NCBI RefSeq assembly: GCF_003991905.1
Contig: NZ_RSCL01000005.1
Location: 186,001-250,000 of the forward strand
From: Dulcicalothrix desertica PCC 7102
GTDB taxonomy: Bacteria > Cyanobacteriota > Cyanobacteriia > Cyanobacteriales > Nostocaceae
Reading direction: 5' to 3'
DNA length: 64,000 bases
Part shown: positions 37,168 through 46,052 of the stretch, piece after piece
How positions within the stretch are numbered: the stretch's first letter is position 1
Layout: every line of letters begins with the position of its first letter
Notes under the pieces: generated by a model
The model's database searches: none
What the model was told of the DNA's origin: nothing
What the model saw: the letters and a program-made list of their open reading frames with translations, nothing else
Program-made: the position numbers and the translations under genes

Positions 37168-39789
37168 ATGAAAAGCGATACGGCAGTTGAATTGTTACGC
37201 CGCTACAAGGAATATGGTGAGTCGATACTTCAGTGTTTGAATTTGGTAGCAGAAAATCCTCCTCCTACACAAGCTTGGGTACAAACGACGATAAGTGAAT
37301 CAATTCAAACCTTTCAGCACTACGCTCAAAAAACGATTGAAATTTCTTCCTCTCCTGTCAAAATTGGCATTATGGGAGAATTTAGTAGTGGTAAAACTCT
37401 GTTACTGGGGAGTTTGATTGGATATGCAGATGCTTTACCTGTAAGTGAAACTCCCACTACTGGTAACGTGACGGCAATTCATTTAATACAGCAGCAGGGT
37501 TTGCAAACTACTAAAGTTGGTCATTTTACTGTGCAGTATTTATCGCACGAAGGTGTGCGTGAGTGCTTGCGGTTTATGCTCAAAGAAGTTGAAATACGCG
37601 CGCAAGCAGCAAAGTTACCTCCGGCGCCAATTGCGACATTACGTTCTTTACAACCCACTACCTTTATTGATGCTAAAAGTATTCTGACATGGTGTGAGTT
37701 GGCGTGGAATCAAACCCAAAGTTTAGAGTTACGGTGTTTACTGCGTGAATTAGTTATTTTTGTACGAACTTACACTTTATATGGAACAGATATTTGTGGC
37801 AGAGTTTATCAAGTTGACCAATTAATAGCGAAAAAAGGGTTACGACTTGTTGAACCACCGATGAATATTTTGGAACTTGAGTTTGAACGAATACCTACTC
37901 CTTATAAACGTTGGAATAATTTACAGGCGCCTAATTCTGAAGATTTACAACACACGTTTTCCCTGATTAGTCGAATTGATGTAACCGTCGAGTTATCGCG
38001 CGAAATTTGGGATTTATCGGGTTTACAGGGAACTAACGAGTTTATCTTGCTCGATTTTCCAGGATTAGGCGCCGCTGATTCTAGTGTTCGTGATACTTTT
38101 TTGTCATTACGCGAACTAGCTGAAGTACAAACAATATTGCTGTTACTCAATGGTAGATATCCTGGAGGCGCCACTGCGGCAAAAATTCGTAGTATGTTGG
38201 AACGTAATAAGGGTGAAGACCTCAAAGACCGCATTATTGTAGGGGTTGGACGGTTTAATCAGTTGCCGATGAGTCCTAGCGATGAGCGTGCGTTAGATAT
38301 ATTAGTGCAGCAAGTTTCTGAACCTGGAGATAATGACGCGATATTTTCGGTGTTCAACGAACCGCTAAATGAAGAAGTTGTATTAGAACAATTACCGATT
38401 TTGCAATTGATTGTTGCGAGTGCGAGTAATTTAACGACAGAGAAGAAAAATATTGTTTTGTTGTCACAGCTACATGGTTTGAATAAGTTGGCTGAGGTTT
38501 CGCGGTTAGTACAAGTTTGTTCACCTGAGTTTTTGCCAGATTTAGAGATACCTAATAAATTAGAGGAATTACGCGCACGCGACAAGTGGCAGCAGTTGAG
38601 CGAGTTATTACCAGCTTCTAGCACGCTTTCTAAACAACTTAGTCATTATATTGATGATGGTGGAATTAGTCGCTTACGTTCTTTACTTAAAGAACATGTA
38701 TCAGTTCACGGAATGAAGCAGTTACTCGAAGATGTGCAGCGAACTGCTCAAGTGTTGCGGAGTGAACAGGTGAAGTTAGAAAATACATTACAGGAAGTTG
38801 CTGCATACATGCCTGTTGTAGAGAATCCGGCATTTTTGACGTTAAGACAAGCGGTGGAAACTTTGGTAGGTGTTTATAGGCAATTTCAAGAAGATTTAGA
38901 CAGGCAACCTATTTTAACCAACCGTAGCGGTGTTTCAGTTAGCGATATTGTTAAGGATGAACTGACGAACAAGATATTTTTTGACTGGAGCGAGTGGACT
39001 TTGTTATTAGACCGTACCAAAAACGGTATTATCTCGCTTGATAAGGGTGAAAGATTTTTTGAGGAAGATGAGTTTGATGACTCAATACCCACGACATCAG
39101 AAGATTTTTATCCAGCGTTTGTTCAGACTCTTCGGGATATGCAAGCTTTTGCTCACGACCGCATTACAGAAGCTGTTATTGATTTGTTTGGTAAAATTTC
39201 TCGCAATGTCGAACTTGAGCGCAGTAAAATCAACTCGCTTATTCTTCCAGAAATGGAACAGTATATTCTGCATAATTATGGTAATAAACAAGCTCGTCTT
39301 TTCCGCAATTTACTTAGAGCAATTGAGCCTGTAAGTAAGTGGCAAAAGTTAATTATTGAACGCAGTGCTTTATCTGGAAGCATTACACCTATTCAAGCGG
39401 ATGCTTTATTTCCTCTGGCACAAAGAGATAGCAAGCATAATCAATGTCAAATTTTTGACTGGAGTCCGCAAAAATCATATCCAGTTACACCACGACCCTT
39501 TAATCATCAAATTGCTGTTTTAAGGTTACGCGATGAAATTACTACGAGTTCGGGTTTGCATTTAATTCAGTATGTTAGTCAGTTAACTAAACAGGTTAAA
39601 TCTTCATTCACGGTTGCCACTAAAGAAATTGTTGATAGCTTACAAGATTTACTCAAGTCTAAAAATGAGCCGTTACTCAGGTATATAGCCAGTGCTGAAG
39701 AACGAAGTAACCGTGAAGGTAGGGCGCCACAACCACCTTGGTTAGAAGCACTTTCGCAAATTGTCGCCATAAGTTATCCAGAAGAATAA
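37168..39789 (+). CDS. Large dynamin-like GTPase
   Basis: An 873-residue protein. The GTPase domain begins with P-loop GEFSSGKT (70-77), switch Thr in ETPTTGN (95-101) and G3 motif LLDFPGLG (294-301). The usual TKxD specificity motif is replaced by GRFNQ around 361-365. A 190-residue insertion between switch I and G3 and long helical regions afterwards (500-870) fit a dynamin-related or SrfC-like protein, probably membrane-remodelling or scaffolding. The stop is three bases before the next ATG, so it is coupled with the Hsp70-like gene. No membrane helix seen. Confidence 0.8.
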   Translation: MKSDTAVELLRRYKEYGESILQCLNLVAENPPPTQAWVQTTISESIQTFQHYAQKTIEISSSPVKIGIMGEFSSGKTLLLGSLIGYADALPVSETPTTGNVTAIHLIQQQGLQTTKVGHFTVQYLSHEGVRECLRFMLKEVEIRAQAAKLPPAPIATLRSLQPTTFIDAKSILTWCELAWNQTQSLELRCLLRELVIFVRTYTLYGTDICGRVYQVDQLIAKKGLRLVEPPMNILELEFERIPTPYKRWNNLQAPNSEDLQHTFSLISRIDVTVELSREIWDLSGLQGTNEFILLDFPGLGAADSSVRDTFLSLRELAEVQTILLLLNGRYPGGATAAKIRSMLERNKGEDLKDRIIVGVGRFNQLPMSPSDERALDILVQQVSEPGDNDAIFSVFNEPLNEEVVLEQLPILQLIVASASNLTTEKKNIVLLSQLHGLNKLAEVSRLVQVCSPEFLPDLEIPNKLEELRARDKWQQLSELLPASSTLSKQLSHYIDDGGISRLRSLLKEHVSVHGMKQLLEDVQRTAQVLRSEQVKLENTLQEVAAYMPVVENPAFLTLRQAVETLVGVYRQFQEDLDRQPILTNRSGVSVSDIVKDELTNKIFFDWSEWTLLLDRTKNGIISLDKGERFFEEDEFDDSIPTTSEDFYPAFVQTLRDMQAFAHDRITEAVIDLFGKISRNVELERSKINSLILPEMEQYILHNYGNKQARLFRNLLRAIEPVSKWQKLIIERSALSGSITPIQADALFPLAQRDSKHNQCQIFDWSPQKSYPVTPRPFNHQIAVLRLRDEITTSSGLHLIQYVSQLTKQVKSSFTVATKEIVDSLQDLLKSKNEPLLRYIASAEERSNREGRAPQPPWLEALSQIVAISYPEE

Positions 39790-39792
39790 TCG

Positions 39793-42700
39793 ATGAGTAT
39801 CAAAATTGAGCTTTTAAACCGCTATCAATTACGTGTAAAGACGCAGGACTTACTCGTTTTACCTGTTATCGAAATCAAACCTGCTGACGGCGCCAATATT
39901 CCCTTTGTATCTCGAATTAATATCACAGTCGGCGGAGTTCCAGAAGATTTAGCTATTGCAATTCAATCGGCATATAAAAGTGTCGCTTTTAGCACCAATA
40001 AACTACTAAAACTATCTACTCCACAGCGATTAAAACAAGCTAATTGTCACTGGTATCAACCAATACAAGCTGGGGTAAATTGTACAATGCTTGTGACGGT
40101 TGAATATTTTGAATCTGATGCTGAAAATAATCCGATTTTGAATGTAATGAAAAAAACAACGGCAGAGTGTAATATTTGGACTTTTGCCGCTGAATCCTCA
40201 CGTTTTGTGCAAATGACTGCAAAATTAATTCCACCCGAACCAATGCCTATTAAGTCACATCTTACCTACCCTGGTTGGTTTGCAATTGACTTTGGTACTT
40301 CAAACTCAACTGTGACGCTATATGACCCTAAAGTTATTATCACTCCCGATACTTTACCTATTGAGCAAGAGACAAAACTGCGCGAACGTATTGCATCTTG
40401 GTTAAACAAGCGTCCTGTCGAAGAAGCTACTACCTCTAGTCGCGGCGCCTGGGATGTAGAATGGCAGAAGTTTCTTTCTGAATTAGGCAAAGATTATCCC
40501 TGTACTAATGCTGCAAATCGCTACAACTTTGGTGAGTTATTAATTCAAGGTGTAAATAGCATACAGTTACTAGAAGTAATTCGCCAAATCGAAATCTGTT
40601 TAGGTAAACGGATGGATTGGTTTCGTCGTGCAGCTAGTAAACATCTTAATTTGATATATCATGAGGTATTTCGAGTACCTGCGTTAGAGTGGCAAAGTTT
40701 AATACCAGTAGAACTCGATAAAAATCGCCGTTCTACAGAAATACCAAGCGAGTTAGAAGTTATTAGCTTGCATAAAATCGCGACATCAGAAAAAGATGCG
40801 GAAGTTAAAGTTATTTTAGGTGAACAAGCCAAACAGCATCGGTTAGATGCGATAAAAAGAGGTGAAGAAGATATTGAAGGAAGATTTTTACATTCACCTA
40901 AACGCTACTTCGGTCAAGATAGACCATGTAAAATTTCGCTCGATGGTGAAGTTGAAACAATACCTATCAATACTTTGTTGCAGTCAGCATATGCACACCT
41001 AATTGATTTAATTGAAAAATATCGCACCTCAAATGTAGGTAAATGTTCAGAGGGTAAATTTTACCGTGCAGTTGTAACGTATCCAACGATTGCATCACCA
41101 TTTGTAAGACGCGAAATTGAGAGTTTGGTACAAAAGCTTGATATTGCTGATGTCCAAATGGCTTATGATGAAGCAGTATCTGTCGCTATTTTCTTTTTAT
41201 GGAGAGAGTTTAGCGGTGATTTGAATGTAGGAATTGAATCATTTAAAAGTCGTTGTCGTTATGACAACGAGAAGTGGTGGCAAAATGTATTGGTGTTAGA
41301 TATTGGTGGGGGAACGACCGATTTAGCGCTAATTAGATTAACTTTGGAAGAAATAAACCCGTTTGAACCAGGAGAAGACAGAGGTGACGGAGGCCGATAT
41401 TATAAGTTGACACCAAAATTATTGGGGTCATCGGGACATTTACAGTTAGGTGGGGAATTAATAACACTACGATTATTTTTGCTGTTAAAAGCTGCGGTTG
41501 CGGATTGTTTATTAACTGCTGTCGCTGATGACCGTATGGGTAAAGATATTTTAAAGATACAACCAGAAGAGTTAAGCGATAGATTTTTAGAAAGCGGTAA
41601 ATTTCATCCGGGTTCACTGCTTGCGTGTGTAGATAAAGAAATTCGCGAAGACGAAGCTTACAAAGAAGCACTTAACGCTGCTGAGAGAGTTATTCCAACA
41701 AGGTGGAAAAATTCACCATCACGCGCTCAAAGCTTTTACAGTTTGTGGGAACATGCAGAAGATGCGAAATTAACGCTAGGGCAAAAGCGTCACAAAGATG
41801 CACCCGAACCAATGTACATTCTCGACGGACAGAAAATTGCTGAACTGCTCGCGCAAAATGATATTAAGCTACCAAGTGCGCTGATAGATAGTTTGAGTGT
41901 AACTCTTACAGTAGAACAATTTGAGAAAGCAACGGCGCCTGTAGTCAAGGAAGCTGTAGCTATTGCTCAGGGTTTGGTAGAAAATGCGCTCTCTCATAAA
42001 TCTGGAACATCGCATCAATACCACGAGAAACCAAATTACAATCACTACGATGAACAAGTCGATTGGTTAATTCTTTCTGGTAAAACATGCAATTTAGATT
42101 TAGTCACACGTGAACTATATAGAGTATTTAGCCAGTCTGACTATTTTATTTGGAACTCTGAACGAGTTACCTTTGAACCTGAGTATACTAAACTTGCCAC
42201 ATCCGCAGGCGCCTGTTTTGCCGAAAAGCTCCGTCAACTTGGGTTTGCACCGAAAGAATCTAAAGAACTATTGCGAAAAGGCGCCAATCAGTTATATATA
42301 GATGTTAAAAATCTATTTTACTTTTTACCTTGTTCGTTTACACGCGAAGTAATAGGCGCCAGTCCAGAACCAATATTTAACGCAGGACAGGAACTCTACC
42401 AACTTCAACCCAAAGAAGGTATAGCTAAATTCCGTAGTGGTTGGCAGGGAATGCAGTTAACGAATAATATTATTCGTCAAGACTTTGAAAATATCAAACC
42501 CCAGCTTTGGGGTAGTTATAACGGTGATGCACTGCGTAGACAGCTTGATATTAGTGAAGATGATTTTAAAAATCACATCAAAATCCAGTTTGAAATTAAT
42601 CAGAAACTAGAAATTGATTTATTACTATGTCGTGGTTTACCACATTACTTTATCTCAAGCAACATCCCATATATAGACGCAGCTAAAGCCATTAATATTC

Positions 42701-43191
42701 CAATCATGGTGACAGATGATGGTAAAGTCGCGGGTGATATAGCGGTAAACATCATCGAATCAGCAAATGCCTTAAAAACCGACGCTCACACATTATTATT
42801 CTCAGGAGAAAAAGATTACAGTAACCTAATTGAAATTTTCCGCGATGAAGAAAACACAACATCAGAATTTACTGGACTAATAGCAGAACTACCACCCTTC
42901 CCAATTAGCGGTAAACACACATTTTACTTTCAATACCACAATCCAAAATCAAAACAATGGGAATTAATTGGTGAACTACCCCAACCGCAAGTCAGTAGCG
43001 AATTCCCGTGCAGGTATTATGTATCACTAACATCCAAAGGAATACTAAGAGTTCACGCCTTTGAAATCCCTTACTGGACATCAAATAGCTCTGAATGTCT
43101 ACTCCAAGAAGGATGTGTATTTCGCGACGCACTCCAACCTCAACCCAACGACATAGAAGCAAAACGCGACCCCTTCTCAGGAGAACATTAA
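39793..43191 (+). CDS. Large Hsp70/actin-fold ATPase, partner of the dynamin-like GTPase
   Basis: An 1132-residue protein. About 160 residues of N-terminal domain precede the ATPase. Phosphate-1 loop FAIDFGTSNSTV lies at 163-174, phosphate-2 LDIGGGTTDLAL near 500-512 and an adenosine-type motif WLILSGKTCNLDLV near 755-770. The ATPase thus spans about 600 residues, with large insertions, followed by a 330-residue C-terminal region that is beta-rich. It resembles SrfB-like or large DnaK-like proteins more than chaperone Hsp70, which it exceeds twofold in length. The three-base gap to the GTPase gene implies a stoichiometric complex. Confidence 0.8.
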   Translation: MSIKIELLNRYQLRVKTQDLLVLPVIEIKPADGANIPFVSRINITVGGVPEDLAIAIQSAYKSVAFSTNKLLKLSTPQRLKQANCHWYQPIQAGVNCTMLVTVEYFESDAENNPILNVMKKTTAECNIWTFAAESSRFVQMTAKLIPPEPMPIKSHLTYPGWFAIDFGTSNSTVTLYDPKVIITPDTLPIEQETKLRERIASWLNKRPVEEATTSSRGAWDVEWQKFLSELGKDYPCTNAANRYNFGELLIQGVNSIQLLEVIRQIEICLGKRMDWFRRAASKHLNLIYHEVFRVPALEWQSLIPVELDKNRRSTEIPSELEVISLHKIATSEKDAEVKVILGEQAKQHRLDAIKRGEEDIEGRFLHSPKRYFGQDRPCKISLDGEVETIPINTLLQSAYAHLIDLIEKYRTSNVGKCSEGKFYRAVVTYPTIASPFVRREIESLVQKLDIADVQMAYDEAVSVAIFFLWREFSGDLNVGIESFKSRCRYDNEKWWQNVLVLDIGGGTTDLALIRLTLEEINPFEPGEDRGDGGRYYKLTPKLLGSSGHLQLGGELITLRLFLLLKAAVADCLLTAVADDRMGKDILKIQPEELSDRFLESGKFHPGSLLACVDKEIREDEAYKEALNAAERVIPTRWKNSPSRAQSFYSLWEHAEDAKLTLGQKRHKDAPEPMYILDGQKIAELLAQNDIKLPSALIDSLSVTLTVEQFEKATAPVVKEAVAIAQGLVENALSHKSGTSHQYHEKPNYNHYDEQVDWLILSGKTCNLDLVTRELYRVFSQSDYFIWNSERVTFEPEYTKLATSAGACFAEKLRQLGFAPKESKELLRKGANQLYIDVKNLFYFLPCSFTREVIGASPEPIFNAGQELYQLQPKEGIAKFRSGWQGMQLTNNIIRQDFENIKPQLWGSYNGDALRRQLDISEDDFKNHIKIQFEINQKLEIDLLLCRGLPHYFISSNIPYIDAAKAINIPIMVTDDGKVAGDIAVNIIESANALKTDAHTLLFSGEKDYSNLIEIFRDEENTTSEFTGLIAELPPFPISGKHTFYFQYHNPKSKQWELIGELPQPQVSSEFPCRYYVSLTSKGILRVHAFEIPYWTSNSSECLLQEGCVFRDALQPQPNDIEAKRDPFSGEH

Positions 43192-43312: not shown

Positions 43313-44489
43313 TTAAACACTAATATTAATAAACCCCACATCTTGAAATATGCTGGCAAAAATAGATTCAACAGGAAGCATTACATCATAAAACTTTGAA
43401 TTGCCCACAATATAATGAATAAAACCTCCATGCTTAACTACCTTATAAAGCTCTTGACTATGAAGGACAATATCAGAAAAATACTTATGAACATAGCGCG
43501 CGAGCAAATCACTTGTTTGAGCAATTTGATCTATGATTGTGTAAAAATCCTTATAGGGAATTTTCAAATCAGATTCCGGCGCCCCTGAACCCAACATTAC
43601 TAGTAGCACAACCCCAAGTTCCACCAATTGCTTGCCAATCGAGTTCACCCGCTTCTCGACCGCTTTGCAAATAACCCAACCAATACATATAAGGACGCAA
43701 TTCACGTATATAACTCATACGATTAGGATAAGGAGGGGAAGTAATGACACATGTGTAGCGATTTGGCTCTAATTTCAGGCTTAAATTGCGAGCATCACAA
43801 AGAAAAACGCGCGGTTGACTAATAATTTTAGAGGATGCTGATTGTTTAATTGTATGAACTATTTCTTTCCATTGAAGTATAATTGGATTCTCAAGCATTT
43901 CCAACAATGGATATTTTGGAGGAATATTTTTTTGAAAAGACATAGACTGATGCCCAAAACTCACATTAGCACGTTCAATCATCAAACGACAAAATGCTAG
44001 TTTAAGTAAGCCACTTGTGTGAAAAGATATTGAATTTTCAATTAAATTAATATTTTCTATAATACTGCTCAGTGCGAAGAGTGTTTTTTCATCCCACCAC
44101 TTTTCTATTTGATGTAAAGGAGGAACCCATGAAGTTTCTATTTGAGAGATTGATATTTTTTCAACAATCAGGTCAGAAGATTTTTCAAAATTTTTAATAT
44201 CTTCTGTCGAATATGAGTTGACTTTAGCATATGCTAACCATCTTAGAAATGGGTTAATATCAGTTGTATCACTTTCTATTCCTTGTTCTGCACAAACCAG
44301 TGCTGTCGTACCAGTGCCGCAAAAAGGGTCAAGAACAACTAGATTTTTATCTTTGTAGTTCTTTAAGATATCTGAAACAAGATGGACAGAATATGCAGGT
44401 GTTAGTCTCAACCATCCATAGCGAGTTTGCTTGAGATTACCCTTATAAGTAAGATGTTCGCTTAAACCAATATTTTTGGAGGTTTTCAT
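43313..44489 (-). pseudogene. DNA methyltransferase with a C-terminal frameshift
   Basis: The first frame (44489 to 43569) carries methyltransferase motif I (VLDPFCGTGTTALV) and catalytic motif IV (TSPPYPNRMSYIRELRPY), typical of N4-cytosine or N6-adenine amino-methylases. After GGTWGCATSNVG it runs out. The remaining C-terminus, IPYKDFYTIIDQIAQTSDLL through VKHGGFIHYIVGNSKFYDVMLP to FINISV, lies in an overlapping frame (43705 to 43313). One base change near 43590 would restore a protein of about 390 residues. No restriction enzyme is adjacent. The gene is inserted between the Hsp70-like gene and the 44937 gene on the opposite strand. Confidence 0.75.
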
Positions 44490-44792
44490 ATCATTATGCA
44501 GTAAGTAAGCGCACTTAAAATAGTTTCTATCTCTTGTTTGATGCGTACAGAGTTTCTTTGGAAAAATGACCCAATGTCAAACCCAACAGTAATTATATTT
44601 TCAATTTACAAGTAGTTTTTATTTACTATATCTAGAAAACTTTAAAATATTAAATTCATATAAATAATCATTTTTTTCAATAATCTTATACTCAAAACTG
44701 GTTAGAGGTTTACTTTTAAACAAGTGTCAAAATTTTTAAGATGCTACCCTACCCTTCGGGATATCCTCCGGATAACGGGAAAACTTCGTTAA

Positions 44793-44936: not shown

Positions 44937-46052
44937 ATGGAAAATCTTAGTAAATTATTGACACTTGAAGAATCACAGCTTGCTTGGGTACTGCGTTTGG
45001 GACTACATGGTTTGCGAAGTCAGTTGCAGCAAGCACTTGAATCTGTGGATTCTGATTTGGGTAGTAATGCTTGTCAAGCACTTGTTGAAGAACTTGATGT
45101 GCTTTTAGAAACTTCAAAATCAGGAGACGTGATGTATCACGTCTCTACAGAAGATGTGTTTGAGCAAAACGTAAATGAACTGAAGTTACAGCATATAGCT
45201 GATAAATTACTAGCTGACCGAGAGTTATCGCTGTATATCGGTGATTATGAGTTTTGTAGTACTTCGGATGCTGATTTGTGGAATGAAATTCAAAGGTTGT
45301 TATTGCGAGTTCCTGAAAAGCTTGCGGATAGTTGGCGCCAGCTTTCGTTTACGCTTGCAGAAGAAGTTGGCGCCGTCTTAGACCATCGTGTGTATAAACA
45401 GCTACCATTTAATCGCTGTGAAATTATGTTTCCAGGTTTGACGGGAAGTATTAAATCAACGGGTTTATGCTTGTCTGACCGGGCGCCGATATCACAGCAA
45501 CTAGTCAAAGAAAATACAAGTGAGGAGTTAGTATTTCTGGCTGGAGTTGTTTCGACTTGTATAAAGTTTATTAATATTGATGCGTCACTGCATCATGCGC
45601 TTAAAAGTGTAGACCGCTTTGGAGTCAGGTCATTAAGCAGCGAAGACGAACGTTCTAAATATGTGACTGTTTTGATTGAAAGGTTTCGTCGCGTTCAAAG
45701 TACTATTGATAATTCTGACCCTATTGTTGTATTACGCGCACGACTAGATTTAGATGAAGCTATTCACTCATTAGTATATTTACCACCATGTGACCGTTAC
45801 TCATGGTGGGGCAAATTGCAACAAGAAACACGTCGTACTCTTGATACTGTTGTTGAACGCGCGCGCAACGCTGGTTATCAAGTACTACTTCGTCCACTAT
45901 GGGGTACTTATGCCGATGTATACACGTGGTCTAAAGACGACTTGCAACTTGATATTGGTGGAGTACCAGGAGAAGTTTCGGCGTGCTTGCGTGTTTATGC
46001 CAAAATTAACGACGAAGTGTTACCGGGACGAGTATTGTTTCGTTCATCTTAA
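44937..46052 (+). CDS. Unrecognised 371-residue protein downstream of the dynamin-Hsp70 pair
   Basis: A soluble protein with helical N-terminal half and mixed C-terminal half (YQVLLRPLWGTYADVYTW then DDLQLDIGGVPGEVSAC). No domain recognised. The start ATG at 44937 follows GGAGAGGG; an upstream in-frame ATG is rejected. Residues 63-71 (GDVMYHVST) are encoded by a GTAGAGACG-type palindrome (45123-45148) inserted in frame. It may be a third component with the dynamin-like and Hsp70-like proteins, but the methyltransferase gene lies between and the link is only positional. Confidence 0.65.
   Translation: MENLSKLLTLEESQLAWVLRLGLHGLRSQLQQALESVDSDLGSNACQALVEELDVLLETSKSGDVMYHVSTEDVFEQNVNELKLQHIADKLLADRELSLYIGDYEFCSTSDADLWNEIQRLLLRVPEKLADSWRQLSFTLAEEVGAVLDHRVYKQLPFNRCEIMFPGLTGSIKSTGLCLSDRAPISQQLVKENTSEELVFLAGVVSTCIKFINIDASLHHALKSVDRFGVRSLSSEDERSKYVTVLIERFRRVQSTIDNSDPIVVLRARLDLDEAIHSLVYLPPCDRYSWWGKLQQETRRTLDTVVERARNAGYQVLLRPLWGTYADVYTWSKDDLQLDIGGVPGEVSACLRVYAKINDEVLPGRVLFRSS

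What the first reader, a model, noticed from the sequence alone, without database searches (positions are those of the whole stretch)
37168..43191. Coupled dynamin-like GTPase and giant Hsp70/actin-fold ATPase
Two very large NTPases lie three bases apart: an 873-residue protein with dynamin-style P-loop and DFPG, and an 1132-residue protein with FAIDFGTSNSTV and LDIGGGTTDLAL motifs. The pairing recalls SrfB/SrfC-type genes of other bacteria, whose role is poorly known. The GTPase lacks a canonical TKxD, and the ATPase has a 160-residue extra N-terminus and a long C-terminus. The nearby 371-residue unknown (44937-46052) is a candidate third partner. This is the best candidate here for an uncharacterised multi-protein machine.
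Basis: partly seen in the sequence, partly recalled or inferred. Interest (0 to 1): 0.7.

Follow-up and report, generated by a model that had tools for sequence, protein, structure and literature searches.

The report
Three-gene NTPase module of filamentous cyanobacteria
A dynamin-like GTPase, a giant chaperone-like ATPase and a helical partner protein are kept or lost together in nearly all genomes examined of one family of multicellular cyanobacteria, which points to an unstudied machine of these bacteria.

Summary
GTPase (37168-39789) and Hsp70/actin-fold ATPase (39793-43191) lie three bases apart, and the 371-aa gene (44937-46052) is a real third partner. In 33 loci the GTPase precedes the ATPase in 33 and the third gene follows in 31; in 80 named loci, 76 of 77 and 75 of 78 scorable. 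ATPase and third gene match the same 43 of 386 Cyanobacteria genomes, all of the window's family. Within that family 186 of 192 match the ATPase. Five genomes lack all three genes; one has all three decayed at two sites. The module also occurs patchily in Okeania, Oscillatoria and Hormoscilla. Nitrogenase and module can occur apart. The ATPase core is Hsp70-like and only weakly SrfB-like, below Pfam's cut-off; no SrfC match was found. Probable Anabaena 7120 orthologues alr1146-alr1148 are listed in print as clade-specific unknowns that rise after nitrogen step-down (PMC4365693, PMC2823733; passages). Best guess: a dynamin/Hsp70 remodelling machine of filament life. The genetic unit is well supported; the function is inference.

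The parts
37168..39789 (+). Dynamin-like GTPase, 873 aa (type A copy); first gene of the module
   Evidence: Pfam Dynamin_N E 1.7e-6, 28.6 bits against cut-off 27, residues 66-117; 32 of 33 aligned GTPases match Dynamin_N at E<=0.1
37372..37398 (+). G1 P-loop MGEFSSGKT (residues 69-77)
38053..38064 (+). G3 DFPG (residues 296-299), about 200 residues after G2: a long insertion between G2 and G3
38248..38259 (+). G4-like GRFN (residues 361-364); GRFD in 29 of 33
   Evidence: that this is the G4 position is inference
39793..43191 (+). Hsp70/actin-fold ATPase, 1132 aa; second gene of the module
   Evidence: hhalign to a three-protein Hsp70 set E 9e-9 over residues 425-563; Foldseek top hit Hsc70, E 1.4e-7, but TM-scores 0.13/0.23
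39793..40182 (+). N-terminal beta-rich region (about residues 1-130), absent in part of the family
   Evidence: predicted strands; short relatives
40288..40314 (+). phosphate-1 motif DFGTSNSTV (residues 166-174)
40891..40914 (+). invariant HSPKRYFG (residues 367-374), possible counterpart of the catalytic-lysine segment of DnaK
   Evidence: invariant; equivalence to DnaK Lys70 is inference from recalled motifs, not covered by the alignment
41299..41331 (+). phosphate-2 motif DIGGGTTDLAL (residues 503-513)
42067..42105 (+). adenosine-type motif LILSGKTCNLDLV (residues 759-771)
42325..43188 (+). C-terminal beta-rich region (about residues 845-1132)
   Evidence: predicted strands; model of mean pLDDT 63
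44937..46052 (+). third partner, 371 aa, mostly helical in the prediction, no known family
   Evidence: follows the pair in 31 of 33 loci and 75 of 78
43413..44635 (.). about 1.2 kb insertion carrying a methyltransferase-like ORF (43569-44489, minus); not part of the module; it separates the third gene from the pair here
   Evidence: absent in Calothrix HK-06 (L069), present in PCC 7716 (L072); Pfam N6_N4_Mtase

Best explanation
A three-component NTPase module. Shown: three genes (dynamin-like GTPase, Hsp70-type ATPase, helical partner) are kept and lost together in one cyanobacterial family and occur in some other filamentous genera. Inferred: they form one complex. The GTPase assembles on a membrane or scaffold, the ATPase drives its assembly or release in an ATP cycle (as Hsc70 uncoats clathrin, recalled), and the helical protein links them or recruits cargo. 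The job is most likely envelope, septal or internal-membrane remodelling in filaments, raised when cells differentiate.
For: Conserved order. ATPase and third gene match the same 43 of 386 genomes. The third gene is intact where it lies more than 1 Mb from the pair, in G051 and G174, and is present in Chlorogloeopsis PCC 6912 although it does not follow the pair there. Five genomes lack all three. In G334 all three are decayed, at about 3.77 Mb and 0.34 Mb of one contig. Strong purifying selection. Dynamin_N in 32 of 33 GTPases; Hsp70-like core of the ATPase. The named hosts are, as I recall them, filament- or trichome-forming genera. alr1146/1147/1148 rise 9.1/2.5/8.7-fold at 12 h of nitrogen starvation in Simm et al. 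Table 6, which cites Flaherty et al. 2011 (PMC4365693, passages); that these are the orthologues is my inference from three consecutive same-strand genes, the 847-aa length and the clade.
Against: The GTPase has no strongly hydrophobic segment (highest 19-residue mean 1.42), so membrane insertion is not visible. G4 is degenerate. The profile finds no solved dynamin-like structure at E<=1. DnaK alone and MreB alone score alike against the ATPase (E 2e-5 and 3e-5), so the Hsp70 side leans on the three-protein set, Pfam and Foldseek. No NtcA or TCCGGA enrichment upstream of the GTPase (9 of 100 against 12.4 in shuffles; 7 against 5.1), though a stricter NtcA pattern gave 4 against 1.8, highest shuffle 6. 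Both models are weak (mean pLDDT 63 and 66). Nothing shows physical contact. One of 77 scorable loci lacks the GTPase (L077), and two GTPases are split (L110, L138). Chlorogloeopsis, often clump-forming (recalled), carries the module.
Confidence: 0.4

Rival explanations
1. A dedicated chaperone or assembly complex: the Hsp70-like ATPase and the GTPase act as timers that build or take apart a large protein complex (for example a septal or heterocyst complex), without acting on lipid themselves.
For: Hsp70-like core; no hydrophobic insertion element seen; degenerate G4.
Against: No J-domain, GrpE or Hsp70 substrate-binding family was listed for any of the three by Pfam at the limits used; the GTPase's best family is Dynamin_N.
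Confidence: 0.25
2. A defence or programmed-death system of multicellular cyanobacteria, comparable to the GTPase-centred systems (some with HSP70) of Kaur et al. 2020.
For: NTPase-centred conflict systems are reported preponderantly in multicellular prokaryotes, and one class joins TRAFAC GTPases with HSP70 (PMC7159879, abstract, outline and passages). Weak LeoA hit, E 1e-3, in PADLOC.
Against: 186 of 192 family genomes match, mostly with a single match; GTPase and ATPase have no match in 72,556 plasmid records at E<=1e-5; ATPase and third gene have none in viral contigs (GTPase not tried); no extra gene recurs beside the three in all loci; strong purifying selection.
Confidence: 0.2
3. A distant SrfABC-type complex working in interaction with other organisms or in secretion.
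For: 33 of 33 ATPases touch Pfam SrfB at E<=0.1; non-significant tblastn hits (E 2-5) to stretches mostly annotated SrfB on Rahnella plasmids; the Xenorhabdus SrfABC operon has three products of 51, 114 and 102 kDa that bind each other (PMC6950479, abstract and passages).
Against: Below the SrfB cut-off, over 7% of the profile; no SrfC-type family listed; present in nearly all members of one cyanobacterial family.
Confidence: 0.1

Closest known systems
Hsp70/DnaK nucleotide-binding domain (PF00012)
   Same: Phosphate, connect and adenosine motifs; hhalign E 9e-9 to a three-protein Hsp70 set, and an alignment of residues 498-791 to DnaK 189-369 at E 2e-5
   Different: 1132 aa with long insertions and N- and C-terminal beta-rich regions; no Hsp70 substrate-binding domain detected; only 18 of 33 members reach Hsp70 at E<=0.1; MreB alone scores nearly as well as DnaK alone
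SrfB (PF07520)
   Same: Best Pfam family of the ATPase, 33 of 33 members
   Different: Below curated cut-off; the window protein matches profile positions 510-582 of 992 only
Bacterial dynamin-like proteins (Nostoc BDLP1, SynDLP, LeoA)
   Same: Dynamin_N G1 region, DFPG
   Different: Long G2-G3 insertion, GRFN/GRFD in place of TKxD, no hydrophobic paddle seen, no hit to solved members by profile at E<=1
DO-GTPase systems with HSP70 (Kaur et al. 2020, PMC7159879, passages)
   Same: TRAFAC-type GTPase with HSP70 in one neighbourhood
   Different: One GTPase, not a pair; DFPG in Walker B; no GAP1-type family listed; no recurrent variable effector gene
Anabaena 7120 alr1146, alr1147, alr1148 (probable orthologues)
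   Same: Three consecutive alr genes; alr1146 a hypothetical protein of 847 aa, Nostocales-specific (PMC2823733); all three in the heterocyst-specific list of unknowns (PMC4365693)
   Different: Listed as unknowns; no function or module is stated in the passages I read

Membership tests
Hsp70/actin-fold ATPases | phosphate-1, phosphate-2 and adenosine motifs in order | tested here: met
Hsp70 chaperones (Pfam PF00012) | score over the curated cut-off, with a substrate-binding domain | tested here: not met
   18 of 33 members at E<=0.1, best 1.1e-3; window protein not listed at E<=0.5
SrfB (PF07520) | score over curated cut-off along the profile | tested here: not met
   Window protein 20.9 bits against 27.1, 73 of 992 positions; none over the cut-off in the whole genome
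SrfC-type virulence factor family | GTPase matches the SrfC Pfam family (accession PF10139 recalled) | tested here: not met
   Not listed for 33 GTPases at E<=0.1 nor for four at E<=10; HMMER filters drop most weak hits
Dynamin superfamily | Dynamin_N domain over cut-off | tested here: met
   28.6 bits against 27 in the window; 32 of 33 members match at E<=0.1; the miss is probably L038, whose ORF lacks G1
Dynamin superfamily | canonical G4 T/NKxD | tested here: not met
   GRFN or GRFD in 33 of 33
Dynamin superfamily | stalk and membrane-binding paddle, GTP-driven self-assembly | not testable with these tools
   GTPase not modelled (both prediction jobs went to the other two proteins); no strongly hydrophobic segment
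DO-GTPase/GAP1 systems | conserved Glu in Walker B, GAP1 partner, variable effectors | tested here: not met
   DFPG in 33 of 33; no GAP1-type family listed by Pfam; no recurrent effector-like gene in the loci
one genetic unit | linked, co-occurring and lost together | tested here: met
   three fragmentary assemblies (G489, G495, G498) have the GTPase but no third gene and a missing or partial ATPase

The most novel reading that the evidence does not exclude
A hitherto unrecognised kind of machine in which an enlarged Hsp70-type ATPase cycles a dynamin-like GTPase through a dedicated helical adaptor, arisen in filamentous cyanobacteria and fixed in the heterocyst lineage as part of the toolkit of multicellular life.
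Probability: 0.25. Interest if true: 0.85.

Novelty: new variant of a known kind. Interest (0 to 1): 0.6.

Why it matters
Genes that mark the heterocyst lineage are candidates for how a bacterium became multicellular. Three entries on published lists of unknown signature genes now read, if the orthology is right, as one GTPase/ATPase module with predicted folds and joint loss, with probable orthologues in a genetically tractable model (Anabaena 7120). The question can be put to a deletion and pull-down experiment at once.

Tried and rejected
A strict link to nitrogen fixation was tested and rejected. NifD is over its cut-off in module-less G334, G400, G401, G411 and G439, while G402 has only a 3e-14 NifD match but a full-length ATPase. 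G402 is a draft of 240 contigs, so a gap could hide nif there. Module-less G395 has a best NifD match of only 7e-120. NifD was not over its cut-off in 41 of 192 genomes, and I did not resolve these.

NtcA (GTAN8TAC) and TCCGGA motifs upstream of 100 GTPases: no clear enrichment. The shuffle used two-base blocks, the gene start was approximate, and some strains occur twice in the set. Plasmid and viral carriage: none at the limits used. A Caballeronia plasmid place found at E 2 proved to be ordinary Hsp70 genes, not SrfB. Fold search of the third protein: nothing at E<=0.001. PHROGs: none for the three proteins. Neighbours downstream in Nostoc-type loci (recognised by eye as a Dam-like methylase, a TrpD-like and a CarA-like protein; not run through Pfam) looked like housekeeping synteny and were set aside. 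tRNA and Rfam scans of the window: empty.

Dropped rows: the weak G070 match (E 0.009, with stops inside) is not counted among the 43. G489, G495 and G498 (450, 400 and 1230 contigs) have a full-length GTPase but a missing or partial ATPase and no third gene; I read them as assembly gaps and do not count them as losses, which is a judgement.
Full report
What is there. The GTPase (37168-39789) and ATPase (39793-43191) are separated by three bases, and the 371-aa gene begins at 44937. The window is part of an 11.4-Mb genome. Its closest named relatives by the ATPase, at 98-99% identity, are Calothrix strains HK-06, PCC 7103, FI2-JRJ7 and PCC 7716. The genome holds a second set of the three genes on contig 2; its GTPase is 47% and its ATPase 54% identical to the window copy.

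The third gene belongs. In 33 loci (the window plus 32 fetched) the GTPase precedes the ATPase in 33, with an extra ORF between them in two (L051, L056), and the third gene follows in 31 (coordinates). In 80 named loci (the best 80 of 167) the GTPase, whole or split, lies upstream on the same strand in 76 of the 77 where it could be scored, and the third gene downstream in 75 of 78, with nothing between in 65. In the window a 1.2-kb insertion with a methyltransferase-like ORF parts the third gene from the pair. It is absent from Calothrix HK-06 (L069) and present in PCC 7716 (L072).

All or none. With the ATPase profile, 43 of 386 Cyanobacteria genomes match in the window's own family, plus one weak match elsewhere that I drop (G070, E 0.009). 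The 20 unmatched rows shown are all from other families; 322 more unmatched rows are not shown. With the third-gene profile the same 43 genomes match. By coordinates the two genes lie near each other in 40 of the 43; the exceptions are G051, G174 and G334. In G051 and G174 the third gene lies more than 1 Mb away yet is intact; Chlorogloeopsis PCC 6912 also has it, though not behind the pair. In the family, 186 of 192 genomes match the ATPase. Of the six that do not, five (G395, G400, G401, G411, G439) have no GTPase match (E<=1e-10) or third-gene match (E<=0.001) either; the sixth (G489) is a fragmentary assembly with a full-length GTPase. G334, counted as a match, keeps only ruins: the GTPase lacks roughly residues 250-490, the ATPase roughly 318-871, and the third gene, at 0.34 Mb against 3.77 Mb for the pair, is broken into pieces. 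Joint decay at two places is the strongest sign that the three work together. As a check on the GTPase profile, three genomes of other families gave no match at 1e-10.

Where it occurs. The best 80 of 167 named loci are all cyanobacterial. Most are from genera that I recall as heterocyst-forming, but Oscillatoria, Hormoscilla and Okeania, which I recall as filamentous without heterocysts, are among them. All four genomes of that kind that I searched have the third gene, and 6 of 61 genomes in the Okeania family carry the ATPase. The pattern scan reaches only relatives that keep one of two short peptides, so distant relatives elsewhere are not excluded. Simm et al. 2015 report similar sequences in Streptomyces aurantiacus (for alr1146 and alr1147) and Frankia sp. 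EUN1f (alr1147) (PMC4365693, passages). A quick tree (68 ATPases, midpoint root, no bootstrap) splits the family into type A (window copy; Calothrix, Scytonema, Fischerella, Rivularia; with Hormoscilla and Okeania) and type B (Nostoc, Anabaena, Dolichospermum, the second copy of the window genome; with Oscillatoria). Hormoscilla, Okeania, Oscillatoria and some others are long-branched, so their places are unsure.

Anatomy. GTPase: G1 and G3 are clear, about 200 residues lie between G2 and G3, and the G4 position reads GRFD, or GRFN in the window copy, its second copy, L036 and L037. In other GTPases an Asp-to-Asn change at G4 alters base preference (recalled), so the guanine specificity of the window copy is open. 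ATPase: phosphate-1, connect-1, phosphate-2, adenosine and connect-2 stretches are nearly invariant in 33 sequences. Profile comparison gives E 9e-9 to DnaK plus two Caballeronia Hsp70s, but 2e-5 to DnaK alone and 3e-5 to MreB alone, so the Hsp70 side is favoured rather than proven. Foldseek's three best solved matches are Hsp70s (Hsc70 E 1.4e-7; then DnaK and a Plasmodium Hsp70), with low TM-scores, from a model of mean pLDDT 63. The N-terminal region is missing in 8 of 33. Third protein: mostly helical, mean pLDDT 66, no solved relative by sequence (E<=5) or fold (E<=0.001).

What it is called elsewhere. Gupta and Mathews 2010 list alr1146 (847 aa, hypothetical) as Nostocales-specific (PMC2823733, passages). 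Simm et al. 2015 list alr1146, alr1147 and alr1148 among heterocyst-specific genes of unknown function, with fold changes of 9.1/5.3, 2.5/1.8 and 8.7/7.7 at 12/21 h of nitrogen starvation (they cite Flaherty et al. 2011, which I did not see), and alr1147 missing from Nostoc azollae (PMC4365693, passages). I infer that these are the module: three consecutive same-strand genes; GTPase ORFs of 846-849 aa from the likely start in three genomes of the genus to which Trichormus sp. M33_DOE_039 and Anabaena sp. 4-3 belong; and a disrupted ATPase start in G385, whose 5,354,700-base contig matches my recollection of the N. azollae chromosome. I had no Anabaena 7120 sequence, so this is not proven. A full-text search of the held library for the three tags returned only these two papers. 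In listings of searches for SrfB with cyanobacter-, dynamin with heterocyst, and dynamin-like with Hsp70, operon and cyanobacteri-, no title or abstract start described such a module. I read passages of a few of those papers only, and subscription journals are not held.

How it may work. Three facts constrain it: co-inheritance of a GTPase and an ATPase that both look catalytically equipped (G1 and G3; the Hsp70-type motif set); presence in filamentous lineages in the loci seen; and no strict link to nitrogenase. The likeliest reading is a membrane or scaffold GTPase whose assembly state is set by an Hsp70-type motor through a helical adaptor, used when filaments remodel cells. Complex formation, membrane action and timing are inferred; only the genetics is shown. 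The lack of a hydrophobic segment keeps a soluble assembly role open, and the absence of a clear NtcA signal means that the nitrogen response, if these are the right genes, may be indirect or use another promoter.

Verdict. A real and strongly conserved three-gene unit that, as far as the papers seen here go, had been listed only as separate unknowns. It is a new variant built from known folds; whether it is a new kind of machine cannot be told without biochemistry.

Noticed in passing
window 43313-44489, minus strand: Methyltransferase-like insertion: two overlapping ORFs (130 and 306 aa) in different frames suggest a broken gene; in L072 two ORFs of 157 and 225 aa lie there. Described only.
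   Followed up: partly
L092, L094, L097, L098 (Richelia, Calothrix parasitica, Plectonema, Rivularia): A 337-364 aa ORF, alike in the four by eye, sits between ATPase and third gene on the same strand; it looks like a membrane-anchored endonuclease/phosphatase-type protein (not run through Pfam).
   Followed up: no
L143 (Okeania) and L107 (Oscillatoria SIO1A7): The third-gene ORF is enlarged (596 and 435 aa); in Okeania its N-terminal part matches the profile more than once.
   Followed up: no
L110/L038 (Anabaena sp. 4-3) and L138 (Calothrix HK-06, second copy): The GTPase is split into two ORFs although ATPase and third gene have ordinary lengths.
   Followed up: no
L077 (Scytonema sp. NIES-4073): ATPase and third gene without a GTPase in the 6 kb upstream; not searched elsewhere in that genome.
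   Followed up: partly
G411, G439 (5.5 and 3.2 Mb, one genus): Two family members of one genus lack the whole module; they may be Richelia-type symbionts (a guess from size), which would fit loss in short-filament endosymbionts.
   Followed up: no
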